Program-made: the position numbers and the translations under genes
Notes under the pieces: generated by a model
What the model was told of the DNA's origin: nothing
The model's database searches: none
The model's input: the letters and a program-made list of their open reading frames with translations, nothing else
From: Dermatophagoides farinae
Taxonomy: Eukaryota; Arthropoda; Arachnida; Sarcoptiformes; Pyroglyphidae
Assembly: GCF_024713945.1 (NCBI RefSeq)
Contig: NC_134678.1
Coordinates: forward strand, 3,782,001 to 3,846,000
Direction of reading: 5' to 3'
Length of the DNA: 64,000 nucleotides
In this document: positions 5,905 to 63,408 of the stretch, one piece after another
How positions within the stretch are numbered: position 1 is the stretch's first letter
Layout: each line of letters opens with the position of its first letter

Positions 5905-6147
5905 ATGAAAAACTTTAAGAATTTTGCCATTTTCGCTATCATGATCGTTTTGATGTTTGGTAATGCTGTTGATGCCGGAATGATAAGTCGTATGTGGAAT
6001 TGGAGCAGTAAACCAGGATATGGCTATAATCAACGATATCCCCCATATGGTGGATATTACCCGGGATATTATCCTGGATATTATCCGGGACATTATCCAG
6101 GAAATTATCCATATAGTCCTCATTACCCAGGATATGGTCGTAGATAA
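5905..6147 (+). CDS. Small secreted Gly/Tyr/Pro-rich peptide
   Basis: 80-residue predicted secreted peptide of unknown function. The N-terminus has a clear signal peptide (basic MKNFKNF, then a hydrophobic core FAIFAIMIVLMFGNAV, probable cleavage after VDA). The mature part is Gly/Tyr/Pro-rich with a tandem Y-P-G-Y repeat (YYPGYYPGYYPGHYPGNYP), encoded by an approximately 12-bp DNA repeat, and ends in GRR. Such peptides occur among cuticle-associated and antimicrobial Gly/Tyr-rich peptides, but composition alone does not decide. A poly(A) signal follows at 6217-6222. Everything from 6020 onward, including the poly(A) signal, is repeated exactly at 13654-13881 beyond the LTR elements; only this left copy keeps the signal-peptide half. 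Confidence 0.8.
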   Translation: MKNFKNFAIFAIMIVLMFGNAVDAGMISRMWNWSSKPGYGYNQRYPPYGGYYPGYYPGYYPGHYPGNYPYSPHYPGYGRR

Positions 6148-6247
6148 ATCTACGAAAAGACTAAACCATTCTTTTTGAATGGTCATTCAATTTTGTATTT
6201 TGACTTTGTTTTTTTGAATAAAATAATCAAAAATTCAAATTGTGCTT
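6020..6247 (+). repeat. Left copy of a 228-bp direct duplication
   Basis: From the codon region atggctata of the peptide gene to aattgtgctt in its 3' flank. By eye it is identical over all 228 bp to 13654-13881. The copies flank the copia-family segment on both sides: at 6248 the sequence changes directly into copia gag, and at 13653/13654 the copia 3' LTR abuts the second copy. Confidence 0.95.
6217..6222 (+). promoter_or_regulatory. Poly(A) signal of the secreted-peptide gene
   Basis: AATAAA 70 bp after the stop codon at 6145-6147. The same signal is carried by the right-hand duplicate at 13851-13856. Confidence 0.65.
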
Positions 6248-8024
6248 AAATAAAAGTCTAATGAACGCGATCATTAGTAATCTGTTGCCTAAGGAGTATG
6301 AATCAGCTCAACAAGTTCTTGCTGTATATAACACTGGAAAGGATGACAGTGATTTGATGTCCGATACCGCATTTGAGTCGCATCTGCTAGAATTGGAACG
6401 AAATCTAAAAACTGATAGTAAACTGGTTGCTGAAACAGAAAACGTTGGTTTGTCAGCATCGTCATCCAAACAAACAAAGAAACAAACGAAGAAGAAGCGT
6501 TTTGGTGGCAAATGTTATAATTGTGGTTTGATTGGACATATGTCGAAAGATTGTCGACGTCCAAAACAAAACGTTGATCCAAGTGGCGCCGCCGCTAATC
6601 CAATCACATTGGTTAATTGGACTGGAATAATGCCATCGAATAATTCAAGCTTTTATAGCGATAGTGGTGCTTCTTATCATATAGTGAATGATCATAGTTT
6701 GTTGTCTGATATACGCAAAAGTAATGTTCGTATCGATTCAATACATGGTGTTGAAGAGAATGTACAGTTTGGTACATTGTTGTGTCAGTTTTTCAATGGC
6801 ACAGTTTGGCTTGATATCAAACTATTAGATGTAGCATTTATACCAAATCAACCGTTTAATTTGATATCAACTGGCAATTTGACCAATCCGCGTATTCATT
6901 CTGGAATGAAGGTCATTGAAGAAGATGGAAAGTTGACTGTATATCGTTTTGGAAAACCGATTTTGACTGGAGAACAGACAAGTGAGATTCGTAATTTATA
7001 TAAACTAAATGTTCGTCCTGTCAATAGAAATACAACCATGGCGTCTGTTTCTTCTGATGATTTTGTGATTTGGCATGAAAGATTGTGCCATTGTTCTACA
7101 TCAGTGTTGGAAAGGATGGTTGCTCTCAAGACTATTATTGGTTTGCCGAAAGATATTCGTAACAATATTGCTTATTGTTCAACGTGTCATACTGGTAAAA
7201 TGACGGATGTTAGTCACAAACCAGTTGCTTCTGTCAATGAAAATATTGTTTCTGGAATGAAGTTGCATGTAGACATTGGTGGTTACATGAAGCCTTCTAT
7301 TCATGGAAATCAATACTATTTATTAGCTGTTGATGATTCGTCATCATATTTAAAAATTGGTTTTATGAAGCAAAGAAGTGAAGTTTATGATAAATTGAAA
7401 TTGTTTATCAATGAAGTCAAAATTGACACTGGTAAAGATGTACTGGTGGTTCGCTCAGACAATGGGTCAGAATTTAGATCCAAGAATGTTCAGCAATATT
7501 TTCGTGATCGTGGAATTGTACATGAATTAGGTGTGGTTGGCGTTCCACAACACAATGGAAAAGCCGAACGATTCATTCGAACAATTTCTGAACGTGCAGT
7601 GGCGATTCTCAACAATAGTGGCTTACCTCAGTATTTATGGGACGAAGCTCTAAATCATGTTGTTTATGTGGTGAATCGTACTTTAAACTCGAAGAATATT
7701 GTGCCATACGAAGAATATTTTGGTAAATCTGTTGATGTTTCAAATCTTCGTGTGTTTGGCTCGAAAGGGGAGAGTTGGATTCCTAAACATGGTAACAAAT
7801 TTTCAACGAAATCTGAATCTGTTTTTATGGTCGGTTATAATGGGTCAAATATATATCGTGTTTATTGCCCTGATCGTCGTTGTATCAAGCTATCATCGTC
7901 AGTGAAATTTGATGAAACTTCAAAGTGTCGTCTTAAGTCAGTTGAGGTTGAATCAAATAGTGGCACGATTATCAATATTGGTGAAAAATCAGATGATGAT
8001 GAAAAATCGAGTCAAAATGCTGAA
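6248..8024 (+). CDS. Copia element: gag (part), protease and integrase coding portion (fossil)
   Basis: Left coding part of the copia element. Visible landmarks are the CCHC zinc knuckle CYNCGLIGHMSKDC near 6513, the aspartic protease motif DSGAS near 6660, the GAG-pre-integrase HxxxxH/CxxC region near 7070-7190, and the integrase core with LHVDIGG, RSDNGSEF and HNGKAERF (D, D, E positions) at about 7260-7570. The part ends at the nested BEL/Pao insertion site. Confidence 0.92.
8019..8024 (+). repeat. Target-site duplication, left (GCTGAA)
   Basis: GCTGAA directly before the BEL/Pao 5' LTR; the same six bases follow the 3' LTR at 11778-11783. BEL/Pao elements commonly make about 5-bp duplications, so one base may match by chance. 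Confidence 0.9.
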
Positions 8025-8250
8025 TGTCGTGAAGTGGGTCGTCCTCGATGAACGGGCCAAGCAATTGGCGCAAATTCTACTGAAAAAGAGTGAGCGAGCC
8101 AGTATTAGCAAGAAAATTGTACATGTGTTTTGTTGTCAAAATTTTTGTATTTATTGTTTAGTTTTTTGCTTTTTGAATTGTATTAAGATACAATCATTTA
8201 ATAAACTACGTTTATTTAACTAAGAAAGTTGTCTTGGTTATTTCTTCACA
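8025..8250 (+). repeat. BEL/Pao 5' LTR (226 bp)
   Basis: Begins TGTCGTGAAG and ends TTCTTCACA; matches 11552-11777 base for base on reading. It carries an AATAAA-like signal near 8200 (tttaataaactacg). Confidence 0.95.
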
Positions 8251-8259
8251 TTTATTAAA

Positions 8260-8640
8260 TGATTTGTACTGTGATCGTGATCATATATTGATTTCGAATA
8301 TTGACTTTGACGTAATTCAAGTATTACGAAAATTTTGTATCGTGATCATTCATTGGTTGCGAAAATTGTTTTGGACGTGACATATTGGTTACGATTATCG
8401 TGGACTCGATTCGGACGTAGCTCAATCATTACGAAAATTTGGACTAAGACTTGGACGTAATATTGGTTACGATTATCGTTTTCCCGTTGTTTGGACGTAG
8501 CTAAATTGTTGCGAAAAATTTGGACTAAGACGTAATACATTGGTTACGACAATTGATTTGTATTTAGATCGTGATCAATTTGTGGTTGCGAATATATTAA
8601 AATTGATTTTGATTGTGGTACTCGTATCGCGAATTTTGAA
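8260..8640 (+). repeat. Degenerate tandem-like repeats in the BEL/Pao leader
   Basis: Between the 5' LTR and the start codon the sequence repeats variants of ttggttacgattatcg, ttggacgtag/ggacgtaat, aaaatttggactaagac and gatcgtgatca several times. Spacing is irregular (roughly 30-110 bp). Such repeated leaders may be packaging or structural RNA signals; this is inference. Confidence 0.6.
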
Positions 8641-8777
8641 AATTTGGTTTTTTGGTATTGTATCATCGGAATTGATTTGATCCCGAACCTTGGAAATTTG
8701 AATATTTGGATAACGGTTACATCTTGGAAACGTATTGAACTTTGGACTGTACCTTTACGATAAACATATAGTAAAAT

Positions 8778-11750
8778 ATGTTGACAATTCCGGATGATGT
8801 GAAGCAACGATTGGCTTCGGCCAGAAGTAATGTATCCCTTCTTCATGTAAGACGTTGGGACATGGCTCGGACAGAACTATTACGTTCTGAATTAGATGAA
8901 TTGAACCAGAAATTGATCGAGTTAGTCGGAGAAGAAGAAATTCCCGAAGAGGAATTAAAAAAGATGGGCGACTACAACAAGAAATTAGATTTGTACATGG
9001 AACATCTGAAAAAGATGAGAATTGTTGTAGTTCGAAATCAGTCCAACGTTCAGGACGATTCTGGTGATCATCTACGTACCTCAACCCCGTTCAATTCAAT
9101 AGTTAACAATTTTGCGGATACATCATCATTGAATAGATGTCGACCAGTTAAGATGGATCAGTTACCGACTTTCGATGGTAAATTCGCATTTTGGAATGCA
9201 TATAAAATCATGATCGAGAAGTTATTGATCAACAATACATCGCTTTCAGAGGATTTAAAGAAATCAATGTTGTTGAAAACCATGAAAAAGGATCCAGAGA
9301 AATTTGTGACAAATTTGATCGGTCAACGATTATCATTAGCCGAGATCTGGTCGAGAGTTTGCGTCAAATTTGATGATCCCCAACGGGCGATATTGGAAAT
9401 CAAGAAAGATCTAGAATCTATCCCAAGAATCGAATCAGAAAATGATGTTCATGATTTGAAAAAGACAAAAGATATAGTAGAAAACGCCAATTTGGCAATC
9501 AAAAATTTGGTTTCAGACGTAATGTTCTACACGATCAATTTGATTCAGGCAGTAGCCACCAGATTCTACTATAAAGCTCAACGTCATATGCTGGCGAAGA
9601 TAAAAGATTTTGATCAATTAGTCAACTATATCGATAAGCTATACGATGAAGCTCTTTGTTATGATTACAATAAGATTCGTAAAGATAGTCCATTGAAGAA
9701 ACAAGAGCCACCGATGATATCGAATAGCACAGCCGCTATCACGACTAATTGTTATATTTGTGAAAAGTTTCATCAAAATAATTTTGAATGTTTGAAAAAT
9801 TATGATGTCAAAACAGTAGCAAATCTAATCAAATCAAAAGGATTGTGCTTCAGATGTTTGAAAAGAGGACATTTAAGTAAAAATTGTCAAATGTCATCGA
9901 AACTTAAATGTGATAAATGTCCACGTCTTCATGCTACCGAAATGCATGAAGTGATTATTGAATTGTTTCAAACGAAACCCAAAGTGATCGACGAATCTAG
10001 TCCAGCCACGGAAGAATCAATGATCGGTAATGCAGCAGCGATATCAGTAGTTGATCAATCGAAAAATGGTTTTGAGATCAAAAAGAATTCTAAGTCAGAA
10101 AGTCGACCGTTATTGTATGGGTCATGTAATGGAATTCAGAGTCGTATGCTGTTTGATTATGGTTCGGATGTTTCGTTGATCGATAAAGAATTGGTAAAAG
10201 ACAAGTCAAATGATTCTGACAAAAATTGTACCGTCTATTCGTCGTCACCACTAGTAGGAAAAGAAGCAAGTCGACGAAAAGTATCGCTGGAAAGACATAA
10301 AGCTAATTTATGTAATGTAAATATTTGTACCAGACCAATCATCGATTTGTCAGAAAATGAAAGTGATATTTATGAACCAATTATTGATCTTTTGAATCGT
10401 CAAGATAATGGAGATATTGATGAACCAATTATTGATCTTTTGAATCGTCAAGATAATGGAGATATTGATGAACTAATTATTGAAGATGACAAAATTATTG
10501 ATCATTCTAGAAATGAATTATTTTTGAAATCTGATCATGAATTATTGAATTTTGAAATTGAAAATGATTTGAACGTTAACGACGAAGACGTTGACGATGA
10601 TTTGAAAATTGTACGAAAAGAGAATGGACGATATGAGGCTCGATTGCCTTTTCTTTCAGATATTCGTCCAGCCAATGATTTTGATAAGGCTCTTATTGTA
10701 TGGAATAAATCGTTCAAACAATCAGAAAATAAGAGCATGAAAAACGAATATGAAAAACAATTATTGGCTTATGTTGATAGCGATCAAACAATGGTAATGG
10801 ATGATCCAAACGGCTATTTGTTGCCGTACCATCCGATTTATCGAGAATCCGCGTCCGCACCGTTGTGTATTGTTTTCAACGGATCGTTTGGATTTGACGT
10901 TTCGAATCAGTTGCTATGGAAAGGCCATGCACACGGTCTTAACATTTTTGATCATCTCATGAAATTCCGCAAAGGAAAATTCGCCGTATCGGCCGATCTG
11001 TCAAAGGCGTTTCTGCAAATGAAAGTTTCAACATTCGGGTTAGTGTCTTCACCCGTGATATTGACATCGGTCACTAAAAAATTATTGTGTGAGCAAAATT
11101 TTGGAACTATTGCTAAATCCCAGATCAAACAGCATCATGAAATGTTATTGCATGATGGTATTGAAACTACCGTTCCTAATTTGTATCATATTGAAAAGAA
11201 ATCTGTTTATTATTGTAAATTTTGTCAAATTGAAAAGCGAAAACCTGTCGATCAACCATTTACTCAATTACCATCAACCCGAACAAGTTTTGTTGCTCTT
11301 TTTGAAGCTGTATGTATTGTTTTATTTGATCTATTGCGATATCGGAACAGAAAAAAGTTTTTTGGTTTGTTGGCCACCGGTTTTGTTTCTCGTAATCATG
11401 ATCTCTTGATGAAAATTGAAAAACTATGGAAGCAAAAATATTTCGATTCATTGATTCAACGTAGACGTTGTGATTGGCCATTGAAATTCAAATTCTTTGA
11501 AATCTTCTACGATCGGTTACGGACATATCCTTTTTGGAATCGGCGGGGGAGTGTCGTGAAGTGGGTCGTCCTCGATGAACGGGCCAAGCAATTGGCGCAA
11601 ATTCTACTGAAAAAGAGTGAGCGAGCCAGTATTAGCAAGAAAATTGTACATGTGTTTTGTTGTCAAAATTTTTGTATTTATTGTTTAGTTTTTTGCTTTT
11701 TGAATTGTATTAAGATACAATCATTTAATAAACTACGTTTATTTAACTAA
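8778..11750 (+). CDS. BEL/Pao element gag-pol-like coding region (fossil)
   Basis: Open frame of about 990 codons starting at an ATG (8778). The N-terminal third is coiled and gag-like (KMDQLPTFDGKFAFWNAYK is the DUF1759 signature, 9150-9210), followed by Cys/His motifs (CYICEKFHQNNFEC near 9750; CFRCLKRGHLSKNC near 9847). A retropepsin-like segment near 10120-10180 contains LFDYGSDVSLID. A 48-bp direct repeat occurs at about 10374-10470. A short RT-like stretch follows (FAVSADLSKAFLQM near 10980), then an integrase-zinc-like stretch (HHEMLLHDGI... near 11130). The frame runs into the 3' LTR. Compared with autonomous relatives, pol is much reduced. Confidence 0.85.
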   Translation: MLTIPDDVKQRLASARSNVSLLHVRRWDMARTELLRSELDELNQKLIELVGEEEIPEEELKKMGDYNKKLDLYMEHLKKMRIVVVRNQSNVQDDSGDHLRTSTPFNSIVNNFADTSSLNRCRPVKMDQLPTFDGKFAFWNAYKIMIEKLLINNTSLSEDLKKSMLLKTMKKDPEKFVTNLIGQRLSLAEIWSRVCVKFDDPQRAILEIKKDLESIPRIESENDVHDLKKTKDIVENANLAIKNLVSDVMFYTINLIQAVATRFYYKAQRHMLAKIKDFDQLVNYIDKLYDEALCYDYNKIRKDSPLKKQEPPMISNSTAAITTNCYICEKFHQNNFECLKNYDVKTVANLIKSKGLCFRCLKRGHLSKNCQMSSKLKCDKCPRLHATEMHEVIIELFQTKPKVIDESSPATEESMIGNAAAISVVDQSKNGFEIKKNSKSESRPLLYGSCNGIQSRMLFDYGSDVSLIDKELVKDKSNDSDKNCTVYSSSPLVGKEASRRKVSLERHKANLCNVNICTRPIIDLSENESDIYEPIIDLLNRQDNGDIDEPIIDLLNRQDNGDIDELIIEDDKIIDHSRNELFLKSDHELLNFEIENDLNVNDEDVDDDLKIVRKENGRYEARLPFLSDIRPANDFDKALIVWNKSFKQSENKSMKNEYEKQLLAYVDSDQTMVMDDPNGYLLPYHPIYRESASAPLCIVFNGSFGFDVSNQLLWKGHAHGLNIFDHLMKFRKGKFAVSADLSKAFLQMKVSTFGLVSSPVILTSVTKKLLCEQNFGTIAKSQIKQHHEMLLHDGIETTVPNLYHIEKKSVYYCKFCQIEKRKPVDQPFTQLPSTRTSFVALFEAVCIVLFDLLRYRNRKKFFGLLATGFVSRNHDLLMKIEKLWKQKYFDSLIQRRRCDWPLKFKFFEIFYDRLRTYPFWNRRGSVVKWVVLDERAKQLAQILLKKSERASISKKIVHVFCCQNFCIYCLVFCFLNCIKIQSFNKLRLFN

Positions 11751-11777
11751 GAAAGTTGTCTTGGTTATTTCTTCACA
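11552..11777 (+). repeat. BEL/Pao 3' LTR (226 bp)
   Basis: Preceded by a purine-rich tract (cggcggggga at about 11541-11550) acting as the likely polypurine tract, and identical on reading to the 5' LTR at 8025-8250. Confidence 0.95.
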
Positions 11778-11783
11778 GCTGAA
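11778..11783 (+). repeat. Target-site duplication, right (GCTGAA)
   Basis: Immediately follows the BEL/Pao 3' LTR and equals 8019-8024, marking the insertion point in the copia coding sequence. Confidence 0.9.
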
Positions 11784-13433
11784 AATGAAGAAGATAATGA
11801 TCATGAACCAGAAGCGACAACATCAACAAATCGTGGTCGTCCGATTGGATCAACAAATCGCAAATATACGGTTTGTGAAGAACGCTTGAAAACGTTGCGT
11901 TCATTTTGTTTGCTGGCTGGTGCAGAACCTTCTACATTTGAAGAAGCTGAAAAATCTGAAGAAAAGGATAAATGGAAGAAAGCTATGAATGAAGAATATG
12001 ACGCATTGATCAAGCACAAAACGTGGAAATTGGTTCCACGACCAATTGATAAAAATATTGTTTCTGTTAAGTGGATTTTTCGTATCAAAAATGATGGACG
12101 TTATAAAGCACGACTAGTAGCTCGTGGTTTTAGTCAACGTAAAAATGAAGATTATTTTGAGACATATAGTCCTGTAGTGTCAATTGAAACAATTAGATTG
12201 GTGCTTTCGATTGCAGCAACATTGAATTATAATGTTTGTCAATTTGATGTGTGCACTGCATTTCTCAATGGTACAATTGATGAAATCTATATTGAACAAC
12301 CGCCTGGATATGTACAAAATGAAAATCTGGTTTGTCGTTTGTATAAGGGCTTGTATGGTCTGAAACAGGCTCCGCGTGCTTGGAACAAGTTATTTGATCA
12401 AGTGATCAAAAGTATTGGTTTTGTTACTTCTCCGTTTGATCCATGTTTATACGTGATGTTTGATGACAACAATCTTCCTATAATGGTTACGTTATACGTC
12501 GATGATGGTTTAATTTGTGCACCGAATATTGAAAATATCGATTTTATTATTTATCATCTTAAAGAAAATTTCGAACTTAAAATCTTAAAACCTGGTAATT
12601 ATCTTGGTCTCGAATTCAGACAAGATAAATCAAAACGTGAAATATATGTGTGTCAAAAATCATATATTCTATTGAAGCTGAAACAATTCAACTTGGATAA
12701 TTCAAAAACTATGAATACACCGATTAGTTCAACAAATGATTGGTATTTGGAATCTACAGTAAACGAAACATTTCCGTATAAAGAAGCAATTGGCAGTCTT
12801 CTTTATTTGAGTACCAGAACCAGAATGGACATTTCATATGCTGTTTCATGTCTAGCTCGTTTTGCTTCTTCATCAAACAACAATCATGTGGTTGCTGTTA
12901 AGCGTGTCTTTCGTTATCTCAAAGGAACAATCGATTATGAATTATGTTTGGGTTCCAAGAACGGTTTCAAATTAACTGGTTATGCTGATGCTGATTTAGC
13001 TGGTGATCAACAGACTCGTGAAACAACAATTGGTACATTGGTGTCGTTAAATGGTCCCATCATCTGGTCGTCAAAACGTGCTAAATGTATTATTGATAGT
13101 ACGTGTGAAGCCGAATATATTGCAACTAGTAAATGTTCCAAAGACATACAATGGTTATTAATTTTAATGGATTATCTTCGTCTTAATATACCAAAACCGA
13201 TTATATTTAATGATAATCAAGCAGCTATTCGACAAATTCATGGTGAAGTCGTGTCTCAAAAATTAAGACATATCGATGTCAAATTTCATCGAATCCGATC
13301 CTTGCTTGGCAAAGTGGACGTAGAATATATTCAGTCATCTCAACAATTAGCCGATATCTTAACGAAAGCTTTGTCAACACAATTGCATCAGAATCTTATT
13401 GATAAATTATTTAATGTATTAGTTGCTGAATGA
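11784..13433 (+). CDS. Copia element: reverse transcriptase and RNase H coding portion (fossil)
   Basis: Right coding part of the copia element. RT landmarks are KHKTWKLVPRP and VKWIFRIK near 12010-12090, YKARLVARGFSQ near 12100, FLNGTIDEIYIEQPPGY near 12260, LYGLKQAPRAWN near 12350 and the catalytic YVDDG near 12496. The RNase H region has TGYADADLAGD near 12980 and CEAEYIA near 13110. The stop codon at 13431-13433 lies about 40 bp before the purine tract and the 3' LTR. Confidence 0.93.
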   Translation, partial: NEEDNDHEPEATTSTNRGRPIGSTNRKYTVCEERLKTLRSFCLLAGAEPSTFEEAEKSEEKDKWKKAMNEEYDALIKHKTWKLVPRPIDKNIVSVKWIFRIKNDGRYKARLVARGFSQRKNEDYFETYSPVVSIETIRLVLSIAATLNYNVCQFDVCTAFLNGTIDEIYIEQPPGYVQNENLVCRLYKGLYGLKQAPRAWNKLFDQVIKSIGFVTSPFDPCLYVMFDDNNLPIMVTLYVDDGLICAPNIENIDFIIYHLKENFELKILKPGNYLGLEFRQDKSKREIYVCQKSYILLKLKQFNLDNSKTMNTPISSTNDWYLESTVNETFPYKEAIGSLLYLSTRTRMDISYAVSCLARFASSSNNNHVVAVKRVFRYLKGTIDYELCLGSKNGFKLTGYADADLAGDQQTRETTIGTLVSLNGPIIWSSKRAKCIIDSTCEAEYIATSKCSKDIQWLLILMDYLRLNIPKPIIFNDNQAAIRQIHGEVVSQKLRHIDVKFHRIRSLLGKVDVEYIQSSQQLADILTKALSTQLHQNLIDKLFNVLVAE

Positions 13434-13474
13434 TGTTATTGTTCATTGTTGGTTTCATGTCCAACAAGGGGGAG

Positions 13475-13653
13475 TGTTGTGATTGTTTGGAACATGAACA
13501 ACAATGATTAACGAATTGTTCAATTAAGAACTTTTGTGCATTGTATAAATATAACCGTAGTTCATTGAAATAAATATATAACTGTTTTTTGTTCGTATAG
13601 TATATACATCTTGTGTTCTTATTTTCATCAACTGTGTAGCAAAATATTCAACA
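13475..13653 (+). repeat. Copia 3' LTR (179 bp)
   Basis: Starts TGTTG after the purine tract aagggggag and ends CAACA, so the ends form a 5-bp inverted repeat typical of copia LTRs. It contains a TATA-like tataaatataa near 13543. No second LTR copy is present in the window. Confidence 0.88.
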
Positions 13654-13781
13654 ATGGCTATAATCAACGATATCCCCCATATGGTGGATATTACCCGGGA
13701 TATTATCCTGGATATTATCCGGGACATTATCCAGGAAATTATCCATATAGTCCTCATTACCCAGGATATGGTCGTAGATAA
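13654..13781 (+). pseudogene. 3' fragment of the secreted Gly/Tyr/Pro-rich peptide gene
   Basis: Corresponds to the C-terminal 42 codons plus stop of the intact gene at 5905-6147, from GYNQRYPPYGG onward to ...PGYGRR. The signal peptide and first half are absent because the copia LTR precedes it directly. The 3' UTR and poly(A) signal are retained. It reads as the downstream half of a gene copy into which copia inserted. Confidence 0.88.
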
Positions 13782-13881
13782 ATCTACGAAAAGACTAAAC
13801 CATTCTTTTTGAATGGTCATTCAATTTTGTATTTTGACTTTGTTTTTTTGAATAAAATAATCAAAAATTCAAATTGTGCTT
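13654..13881 (+). repeat. Right copy of the 228-bp direct duplication
   Basis: Identical on reading to 6020-6247. It begins exactly at the outer end of the copia 3' LTR, and unique flanking sequence begins at 13882 (gcgatgaac...). Confidence 0.95.
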
Positions 13882-44524: not shown

Positions 44525-44608
<84 letters not shown>

Positions 44609-60165: not shown

Positions 60166-63100
60166 TTACCTTCCGCTTCCTTTAGATGAGGTGGATTTAC
60201 TACCTCGTTGATTTGTAGTCGTGGTTGTCTTTTTGGTGGCCAATTCTCGTTCTTCCAATTCTTGATTCTCACGTTCAATCAATGTGATGAGTGTATTGCA
60301 ACGACGTTGCAGCTCGCTAGTTGTACGAGATTTAAGAAACCAATCGAATCGAAATTGTGGAGCTTCTCGAATGGCTAGTTTCAGATCTTCATACACTTGT
60401 TCGCGATCGACGCCCAATTTATGAAGCATGCATATGAGATAACGATCCTCCTCCTCGATGTAATTCTTTCCTTTATTGGCACCATAATTGATACGTAACT
60501 GATGGAATGGTGCAGAATACCGTTGCATTTTCATTTCAATAGCTCGTTTGATGTCCTGTCGTCGTTTGATGCGTTGTTCACCTTTTTCAATCTGTGCGAT
60601 GATCTTTTCACTATCAGCCAATTCTTGATATCTTTCCCAGAATATTTTAGCATAATCGATAACCTCCTCAGGCGTTTTACCTTCGATCTCCTTGGAGATT
60701 GAATCAATATCCTCGCGACCATATTTTTCACACATCTTGATGAATTGATTGAAATCCCTTCGTGACCAATTTATAAATCCTTCTTGTAGCAATTCTTCTT
60801 TCTCTTGTTGTTCGTCCTCGGTCAGAGGTTCGCTCTTATCAATCAATTTTTGCTCTTGTTTTCGTTGTTTTTCAGCACCTTCGCCAAGATCAGGATTCAA
60901 TGGTACTTTGTAGCCGATAGTTTTTCGGTAATAATAGATTTCTTTGTCTAACAATTCGAACAATCGAGGTGGAAAGAACTGAAAATCTTGTACGTTCGGC
61001 TGTTTCGGTGGCCGAGGAGCTTTGGGTGCTTTCGGTTCAGAAACACGTAACGCTTCTCGAAAATAAGCATCGACAGCATAGTTGGCTTTTCGTTCACGCT
61101 TTGGTGGTTCGATCCAAGCAAAAGTGGCCATTTTTTGTTTTTCTCGATAGTCTTCGCCTTCAAATTGATAGACACTGTCGGTATTTGTATCAAGCGTGAA
61201 ATTCTTTAGCTGTGATTCACCCAAAGTTTCGAGACGTTTTTTCATCTCCTCAGTTTTAGATTCACCCTTTTTGAGAATTGCGTCTAGATCTTCATCGGTG
61301 ATTTCACTGTCTTTCGATGCAAATATGTGATCGGCTCCATGACGAATCATACCCAATACTTCGTCTTTGCCTAACTTGTTGGCATTCGAATCGACAAGTC
61401 TTCCCTGTTGGATGACCAACGTATCTAAACGTAATTTGACTTCTGCTCGTTCGACGATACGTTCTTCAACTGTGTTTTCGGTAATCAATCGAAACACCCG
61501 GACAGTTTTCTTCTGGCCAATACGATGTGCACGATCCTGTGCCTGAAGATCTGCTTGTGGATTCCAATCTGAATCATAGAGGATAACAACATCGGCCGTG
61601 GCCAGATTGATACCAAGACCACCTGCACGTGTACTTAGCATAAAAAGGAATTTATCGCTATCAGGTTTGTTATATTCTTCTATGCTTCGTTCTCGATCTT
61701 CATGTGAAGTCTGGCCATCAAGACGGCAGTATTTATATCCACGCCATAGACAATAATCTTCGAGAATGTCAAGCATCCGAGTCATTTGACTGAAAACGAG
61801 GACACGGCTATCCTGTTCTTTAAGCCGTGGCAATAACTTATCAAGGATTGACATTTTTCCACTATTCTCCACAAGATGCATATCTGTCGTATAAGGTGGA
61901 CCTGGTTCAGCACCATCAAACAAATATGGATGGTTTGCACATTTACGCAACTGCATCAAAATGTTCAATAGTCGAAGTTTGTCTGATTTACCAGCATTGT
62001 TAACAACGTCGATATCTTTCATCAGTATTCGCGTATACCATTCCCGTTGCATTCGACTAAGACCGACATAAATTTTTGTCTCAGCTTTTGGGGGTAATTT
62101 TTTTTCCACTTCACTTTTCAAACGACGCAAAAGAAATGGTCTTAAAACACAATGCAAACGTTCAACAAGGGATTTGTCGCCCAAACAGGAATTGGTGTTA
62201 AACCAGGAATCAAAATCATCCGATGAATTGAACACGTCGGGCAGCAGAAAGTTGAGGAGAGCCCAAAGTTCGTGCAAATTATTCTGCAACGGGGTACCGG
62301 TCAATAACAAACGATTGGTAGATTTGAATTCACGAATTATTTCTGATAGTTTGCTTTTTTCGTTTTTGATACGATGAGCCTCATCGATGACAAGATAACG
62401 CCAATTGAATTTTTTCAGCACACCCTTCTCTCTGATAACCATCTCGTATGATGTCACCAACACGTCGAAACTGTTGGGCGGACCCATGAGGACATCGCGA
62501 ATAATCTCATTACGTGCGTCTTGATTTCCGATTAGACAAACAGGCTTCAACGTGGGACACCATTTCTTTATCTCATTCATCCAGTTAGTCAGAGTTGATT
62601 TCGGACTGATGACCATATGAGGACCAGCGCCATTCTTATAATGTTTCATGTAGCCGAGCAACGAGATGGTCTGCAACGTCTTGCCTAAACCCATTTCATC
62701 GGCAAGGATACCATTGATGCCATTCTCCATTAAGCTGATCATCCAATTCAATCCACGAACTTGATAGTCCCGCATTTCACCGTTTTTGATATAAGTAGGA
62801 CTTTGTTCGAAACGAAAAAAACCAACTGGTTTCTTTGTAGCTGAAAGTAGTTCTTCATCTTCTTCCTGTTCGGTCATTCGATGGCGATGATCACCAGTAG
62901 TAGGAGCAGATACAGAAGGTGCTGATACAGGAGGTGCTGATACAGGAGGAGCTGTCGGCGTTTCTTTAGGTTTTGGTTTACGACCACGTTTGGCTGTCGT
63001 ACTTGAATCAACCATTGGTGTCACACCAGTTGTCATGAAATGAGAGAAAATTTCAGTCTGTTTGAGTAGATAATCGAAACGTTTTGAACGATCTTCTTTG

Positions 63101-63408
63101 ACACGTGCATCGAAATCATTGGATGAGATCATTTTGGAAAATTCGTCCACGGCTGATTCGGCAGGCGTTGTCGATTGAGAATCGTCGGGTTCATTAGATG
63201 AATCGGCTTTTGATTCCATATCATCCGCTTCCATCGGTGTTGCTGATTCGGATGGCCGATCATCTTGCCTTTCATCAATGGCCATATCAACGTCTTCATT
63301 CACGGTCGTTGATGCATCAATTTGGCATTTATCCTTCGCTTCATCTGATTTTTTTTGATCTCGATCCATCGTATCATTATTCACTGTGCTATCATTTGTT
63401 GCAGACAT
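60166..63408 (-). CDS. Iswi: ISWI chromatin-remodelling ATPase (SMARCA5/SMARCA1 type)
   Basis: SNF2-family nucleosome-spacing ATPase, catalytic subunit of NURF/ACF/CHRAC-type complexes. Intronless for 1,080 codons. An acidic, Ser/Asp-rich N-terminus with a short APPVS repeat precedes AutoN-like sequence. ATPase lobe 1: [20 protein letters not shown], Walker [42 protein letters not shown]. Lobe 2: [61 protein letters not shown]-terminal [53 protein letters not shown] and [20 protein letters not shown]. The stop codon (60166-60168) is the TAA inside a consensus donor GGTAAGT; splicing it to an acceptor at 60106-60105 would instead end ...GSGRTRK with a stop at 60092-60094. Confidence 0.98.

What the first reader, a model, noticed from the sequence alone, without database searches (positions are those of the whole stretch)
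5905..13881. Exact 228-bp duplication of a secreted-peptide gene's 3' end brackets a copia-family fossil
The left copy (6020-6247) belongs to an intact peptide gene and passes straight into mid-gag of a copia element. The copia 3' LTR abuts the right copy (13654-13881), which starts mid-gene. So the left boundary is not an LTR and the right boundary is. This fits a rearrangement, or a merged haplotype pair, between an allele with the intact gene and an allele in which copia had inserted at ...GGAT/ATGGC. Either the species carries a recombinant chromosome that keeps an intact gene, or the assembly has joined two haplotypes. The 228/228 identity means it is recent.
Basis: partly seen in the sequence, partly recalled or inferred. 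Interest (0 to 1): 0.75.

Follow-up and report, generated by a model that had tools for sequence, protein, structure and literature searches.

The report
Jumping gene landed, gene copy survived
A mobile element inserted into the middle of a small animal gene, but a 228-base stretch of that gene was copied in the process, so a complete gene is still present beside the element; this matches a rare but known kind of botched insertion, and whether it is real or an assembly join still needs sequencing reads.

Summary
6020-6247 and 13654-13881 are identical over 228/228 bases, the longest exact repeat in the window. The left copy finishes an intact 80-aa signal-peptide-like gene and then runs into mid-gag of a copia element. 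The right copy starts directly after the terminal CA of that element's 3' LTR (13475-13653). No 5' LTR was found in the window.

'Fossil' is wrong. Both copia ORF pieces lack internal stops and keep protease, integrase, RT and RNase H motifs. They are split only by a younger nested BEL/Pao-like element with identical 226-bp LTRs and a GCTGAA target duplication.

My best reading is one aberrant integration. Integrase joined the 3' LTR end normally. The truncated 5' end was attached by host repair 228 bp downstream, giving a giant target duplication that spares the gene. Such anatomy is described for HIV (PMC5041404), and naturally for a one-LTR truncated HERV-K provirus between 111-bp duplications (PMC5488345, whose authors also weigh rearrangement).

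An assembly join cannot be excluded: no reads, genome or relatives were available. Rare but of a known kind.

The parts
5905..6147 (+). Intact small gene: 80-aa peptide with a signal-peptide-like start (read by eye, no predictor run) and a Gly/Tyr/Pro-rich (GYYP-type) tail; no Pfam match
6020..6247 (+). Left copy of the 228-bp duplication: gene 3' part, stop, 3' UTR, AATAAA at 6217-6222
6247..6248 (.). Aberrant junction: gene 3' flank joined to mid-gag of the copia element, 25 nt after AATAAA; first base after the junction differs from the host base after the right copy (A versus G)
6248..8024 (+). Copia element, 5'-truncated: late part of gag, CCHC knuckle, protease motif (DSG), integrase (D, D, E motifs), open
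8025..11777 (+). Nested younger LTR element (BEL/Pao-like, weak assignment), LTRs 8025-8250 and 11552-11777 identical over 226 bp, flanked by GCTGAA at 8019-8024 and 11778-11783; single long ORF, lacks YVDD
11778..13433 (+). Copia element, second piece: reverse transcriptase (YVDD) and RNase H-like motifs, open to its stop
13475..13653 (+). Copia 3' LTR, 179 bp, TGTTG...CAACA, TATAAA at 13544, purine tract just before; only copy found in the window
13654..13881 (+). Right copy of the 228-bp duplication, starting at ATGGC directly after the LTR terminus, running into what is presumably the gene's native downstream DNA

Best explanation
A single aberrant, one-ended integration of a copia element into the peptide gene. 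Integrase joined the complete 3' LTR end to the gene at ATGGC (inferred from the exact CA terminus against host sequence). The other end of the cDNA was incomplete or eroded to mid-gag and could not be joined by integrase. Host repair attached it to the gene's 3' flank 228 bp further on, by copying local host DNA and then recombining, or by filling a staggered break. The 228 bp between the two joins were therefore duplicated, as a giant target site duplication. The result is a truncated one-LTR element next to a complete gene. A BEL/Pao-like element later jumped into the copia. Shown: the duplication, the termini, the truncation, the nested insertion and the open ORFs. Inferred: the one-step mechanism, and that the 5' LTR was lost during integration.
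For: There is one perfect LTR end on host DNA and one truncated end, with a host duplication of hundreds of bp starting exactly at the LTR terminus. The same three features are reported for aberrant HIV integrations: in most, one end looks normal; the other is often truncated; the host DNA is most commonly duplicated there, by up to hundreds or thousands of bp (PMC5041404). A natural HERV-K case, 6p25.2, has one LTR, a deleted ORF, 111-bp duplications and a sequenced empty allele; the same table lists 206-, 250- and 450-bp duplications at other HML-2 sites (PMC5488345). One event suffices. Open ORFs with catalytic motifs fit a recently active element.
Against: No intact relative of the copia or empty allele could be found (0 confirmed loci; 0 exact matches), so neither the missing 5' part nor microhomology on the copia side of 6247/6248 can be checked. 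The published mechanism usually leaves short homology at the aberrant end; none is visible on the host-downstream side. The same sequence can arise from the rivals below. PMC5488345 itself says its long duplications may come from later rearrangements and not be true target duplications.
Confidence: 0.5

Rival explanations
1. Two steps: copia first inserted normally at ATGGC. In a heterozygote (or against an empty sister) a break in its 5' part was repaired by copying the gene from the empty chromosome for 228 bp past the site, followed by end joining to mid-gag (SDSA plus end joining), or by unequal exchange between the alleles.
For: Gives exactly the observed structure. In Drosophila, most repair products recovered from wild-type flies in a 14-kb gap assay are reported to come from incomplete repair synthesis followed by end joining (PMC2895639, passages).
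Against: Needs an extra event, a break inside the element and an empty template. No trace of the 5' LTR was found, though none is expected to remain.
Confidence: 0.25
2. Assembly join: a contig of the empty haplotype ending at 6247 was joined to a contig of the occupied haplotype starting in mid-gag.
For: The repeat is 100% identical, the gene part is duplicated, and no reads were available. The junction is not an element end.
Against: The window has no N. The host sequence after the right copy differs from the copia side from the first base on, so an overlap join would have to rest on unseen gag sequence.
Confidence: 0.16
3. The gene was already tandemly duplicated. Copia inserted in the second copy, and a deletion then removed the first copy's downstream DNA, the second copy's 5' part, the 5' LTR and gag start.
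For: PMC5488345 offers a model of this type for the truncated provirus at 6p25.2. It needs no unusual integration.
Against: Needs three events. blastn found no other substantial copy of the gene's 5' part or of 605 bp of upstream DNA in the window (only chance-like hits of 14-31 bases, E 0.03-0.07).
Confidence: 0.07
4. During reverse transcription the copia cDNA switched template at mid-gag to the peptide gene's own mRNA near its poly(A) site, and the chimera then recombined into the gene.
For: The junction lies 25 nt after AATAAA, where cleavage and polyadenylation would be expected (recalled), and the next three bases are A.
Against: Requires the captured mRNA and the integration target to be the same gene. 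There is no poly(A) run, and the gene ORF has no intron that could show an RNA origin.
Confidence: 0.02

Closest known systems
Aberrant retroviral integrations (one end by integrase, one by the host): HIV-1 with integrase inhibitors or weak integrase, ASLV vectors with one bad end (PMC5041404, passages and Discussion seen)
   Same: One normal LTR-host junction, other end often truncated, host duplication of hundreds of bp at the aberrant end
   Different: Here a copia-type LTR retrotransposon in a genome assembly, not a retrovirus in cultured cells; microhomology on the element side not testable
HERV-K (HML-2) truncated provirus at human 6p25.2 with 111-bp duplications, and other long-duplication HML-2 sites up to 450 bp (PMC5488345, abstract, Results and Discussion seen)
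   Same: One LTR, other end cut inside the ORF, long near-exact flanking duplication, natural genome
   Different: Different superfamily (retrovirus-like versus copia). There the 3' LTR is the missing one, here the 5' LTR. Here the insertion lies in a coding gene and the duplication leaves a complete gene copy; the empty allele is not shown here
Ordinary copia (Ty1/copia) insertion
   Same: Domain content, protease-integrase-RT-RNase H order, LTR termini TG..CA
   Different: No 5' LTR or gag start, 228-bp instead of about 5-bp duplication (5 bp recalled)

Membership tests
Ty1/copia LTR retrotransposon | Integrase upstream of reverse transcriptase, with copia-type Pol domains | tested here: met
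   Pol_BBD, gag_pre-integrs, SH3_retrovirus (rve just under cut-off) in 6249-8024; RVT_2 at 7.2e-62 in 11778-13433; integrase structure hit 7z0h (name Ty1 recalled)
Ty1/copia LTR retrotransposon | Two LTRs with TG...CA ends, PBS and PPT | tested here: not met
   Only a 3' LTR (TG..CA) and a PPT-like tract; no 5' LTR found. The gag piece follows host DNA directly, so there is no leader that could hold a PBS (a PBS was not searched for as such). A truncated member, not a complete element
Aberrant one-ended integration with long target duplication | One LTR-host junction exact | tested here: met
   13653/13654: LTR terminus directly on host ATGGC
Aberrant one-ended integration with long target duplication | Other element end truncated and long host duplication flanking the element | tested here: met
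   mid-gag start at 6248; 228/228 duplication. By the very weak match to a 'Copia VLP protein' chain (8vvw; query 82-107 on chain 225-250, E 7.9) about 140 gag residues would be missing
Aberrant one-ended integration with long target duplication | Empty (preintegration) allele with a single copy of the duplicated sequence | not testable with these tools
   No genome held, no population data; no relatives found
Aberrant one-ended integration with long target duplication | Short homology at the aberrant junction (usual, not universal) | tested here: inconclusive
   None on the host-downstream side; the copia sequence upstream of 6248 is unknown
BEL/Pao element (nested element) | BEL/Pao gag/pol domains with RT | tested here: inconclusive
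   DUF1759 at 6.8e-04, below its cut-off; CCHC at 0.058, below its cut-off; no RT family match in the two pieces scanned; no YVDD
BEL/Pao element (nested element) | LTRs with TG...CA and a 4-6 bp target duplication (range recalled) | tested here: met
   226/226 identical LTRs, TGTCG...TTCACA, GCTGAA on both sides

The most novel reading that the evidence does not exclude
A gene-sparing insertion that also founds a new transcript: the giant duplication keeps the host gene whole, while the orphan copia 3' LTR drives the duplicated gene 3' end. The first ATG after the LTR's TATA box is the ATG of the insertion site itself (13654, context CAACAATGG). It opens a 52-codon frame-shifted reading of the repeat region and uses the gene's own AATAAA, which would make an overprinted new peptide.
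Probability: 0.05. Interest if true: 0.55.

Novelty: new member of a known kind. Interest (0 to 1): 0.36.

Why it matters
If real, it is a natural case of one-ended integration in a copia-type element, a pathway that the two papers read here document for retroviral vectors, HIV and, as one possible reading, a few HERV-K loci. It shows how an insertion inside a coding region can leave the gene intact. The 228-bp repeats also make it reversible in principle, since recombination between them would restore the empty gene. Surveys of LTR elements that look only for two LTRs and 4-6 bp duplications would miss such copies (inference). If it is an assembly join, it is a warning about haplotype merging at transposon insertions.

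Tried and rejected
Chance repeat: rejected; Markov resamplings give at most 18 bases against 228. Old fossil: rejected; no stop inside either copia piece. A 5' LTR elsewhere in the window, either strand: none found by blastn at E up to 0.1 beyond an 18-base hit. Further copies of the peptide gene in the window: none beyond the right copy; the other hits of the duplicated stretch were its own inverted low-complexity matches (22-47 bases) and four matches of 16-25 bases at E 0.01-0.04, and tblastn of the peptide gave only the gene and the right copy. No tRNA and no Rfam match at gathering thresholds in the window. Relatives: copia pieces and the peptide in viral contigs (4, 61 and 8 pattern stretches, 0 confirmed; one search used 6249-7800 only), the second copia piece in genome contigs (32 stretches, 0 confirmed), exact patterns of gene and LTR in viral contigs (0 and 0). 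These searches reach only close relatives and these collections are mostly viral and prokaryotic, so the absence says little. Paper searches on mite transposons (1 and 2 papers listed, none opened) gave nothing usable; that the host is a mite is only my guess. Searches on one-LTR or long-duplication LTR retrotransposons (0, 7, 8, 10 of 408 and 10 of 25 papers listed) gave the HERV-K paper; I noticed no copia case among the listed titles and abstract starts. Seven of the nine paper searches that I ran bore on precedents, so I do not claim that no copia case is in print.

Full report
Observation. The two stretches 6020-6247 and 13654-13881 are identical in all 228 bases and differ immediately outside. 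They are the longest exact repeat in the 64-kb window; the next is the 226-bp LTR pair of the nested element. Twenty first-order Markov resamplings of the window gave longest repeats of 15-18 bases (20 of 20). The window has no N and 35% G+C.

Anatomy from left to right. An 80-aa ORF (5905-6147) starts with a hydrophobic, signal-peptide-like stretch (by eye) and ends in a GYYP-type repeat; it has no Pfam match. Its 3' UTR carries AATAAA at 6217-6222, and the shared sequence ends 25 nt further on, at 6247. From 6248 the sequence is copia. The ORF piece 6249-8024 contains a CCHC knuckle, Pol_BBD, gag_pre-integrase, integrase core (just under the Pfam cut-off) and SH3 domains. The piece 11778-13433 contains RVT_2. 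DSG, the integrase blocks HVD, SDNG and AERF, YVDD and RNase H-like motifs are all present, and neither piece has an internal stop (motif meanings recalled). The first piece starts in the middle of gag: the knuckle region lies at residue 82-107 here and at 225-250 in a 'Copia VLP protein' chain (8vvw, E 7.9, very weak; that it is the Drosophila protein is recalled), so roughly 140 residues plus leader and 5' LTR are missing (inference). The element ends in a purine tract and a 179-bp LTR (13475-13653, TGTTG...CAACA). The next base is the A of ATGGC, the first base of the right copy. blastn at E up to 0.1 found no other copy of this LTR in the window on either strand, apart from an 18-base hit at E 0.03.

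Nested element. Between the two copia pieces lies 8025-11777, with identical 226-bp LTRs and GCTGAA on both sides. It has one long ORF, a weak BEL/Pao-type gag match (DUF1759, below cut-off; that this family marks BEL/Pao gag is recalled), a CCHC knuckle, a protease-like DYGS, part of an RT-like block (SADLSKAF, by eye) but no YVDD; two scanned pieces of its pol part gave no Pfam match at E up to 10. I read it as an internally shortened, non-autonomous BEL/Pao-like element, with low certainty on the family. It inserted after the copia and is itself recent.

Age. Zero differences in 228 bp set only an upper bound: about 0.0066 changes per site for each copy at 95% (3 divided by 456). Gene conversion between the copies could also keep them alike.

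Mechanism. Three facts must be explained together: an exact LTR end on the right, a truncated end on the left, and a host duplication whose start is the LTR terminus. The paper on aberrant HIV integrations describes this set. In most cases one end looks normal, the aberrant end is often truncated, and the host DNA is most commonly duplicated at that end, by lengths that can be hundreds or thousands of bp; deletions, inversions and insertions from other chromosomes also occur. [quoted passage not shown] passages, Discussion). A natural parallel is the HML-2 locus 6p25.2: one LTR (there the 3' LTR is the missing one), an ORF cut short, and 111-bp duplications with a sequenced empty allele. That paper's Table 2 lists 8 sites with flanking repeats over 10 bp, among them 206, 250 and 450 bp, while it inferred 451 putative duplications in all, so such cases are rare. 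Its authors also say that some long repeats may be 'pseudo-TSDs' from later rearrangement, and give a model for 6p25.2 with a pre-existing duplication and a deletion (PMC5488345; outline and abstract, Results, Discussion). The one-step mechanism is inferred; what the sequence itself shows is the end product.

What cannot be decided. No genome is held for the window and no relatives were found. So the missing gag sequence, microhomology on the copia side of 6247/6248, the empty allele and read support cannot be examined. On the one side that can be compared, the host sequence after the right copy (GCGATGAAC...) and the copia sequence at the junction (AAATAAAAG...) differ from the first base. 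A shared ATGAAC lies 3 bases into the host flank and 13 bases into the copia, out of register and away from the junction; I take it as chance. This gives no support to an overlap-based assembly join, but does not exclude one.

Consequence. Unlike an ordinary insertion in an exon, this one leaves a complete gene with its own upstream side, stop codon and poly(A) signal, because the duplicated part includes the rest of the gene downstream of the insertion point. The right copy lacks the gene's upstream DNA. An LTR-started transcript would meet its first ATG after the TATA box at 13654 and read 52 codons in another frame before a stop. I regard that as a curiosity unless RNA evidence appears.

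Host. An animal is indicated by the ISWI protein at 60166-63408, whose best structure hit is a SWI/SNF-related matrix-associated regulator (8v4y) at 1603 bits, against 965 bits for ISW1; that 8v4y is a human protein and ISW1 a yeast one is recalled. A mite is a guess from memory of similar genomes and was not tested.

Verdict. Interest is moderate.

Noticed in passing
8025-11777: Nested LTR element with identical 226-bp LTRs and GCTGAA duplications, one long ORF but no YVDD: a recently moved, internally shortened, probably non-autonomous BEL/Pao-like element (family assignment weak).
   Followed up: partly
10155-10166: The nested element's protease-like motif reads DYGS rather than D(S/T)G (motif recalled), so its protease may be inactive.
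   Followed up: no
8371-8531 and 10365-10483: Tandem repeats inside the nested element: two 80-bp units in the leader and 2.5 units of 48 bp within the ORF.
   Followed up: no
13654-13812: A 52-codon frame-shifted ORF opens at the first ATG downstream of the orphan LTR's TATA box, in a favourable start context, reading the GYYP-repeat DNA in another frame.
   Followed up: partly
6217-6247: The aberrant junction lies 25 nt after AATAAA, about where the mRNA would be cleaved; possibly coincidence, possibly a break-prone transcription end.
   Followed up: no
44525-44605: Near-perfect (AG)40 dinucleotide array.
   Followed up: no
14260-63408: Host genes nearby, by Pfam, include an MFS transporter, a GNAT acetyltransferase, a Nop-domain protein, a Nup186/192/205-type nucleoporin, a PROPPIN WD protein, an NSF-type AAA ATPase and ISWI.
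   Followed up: partly
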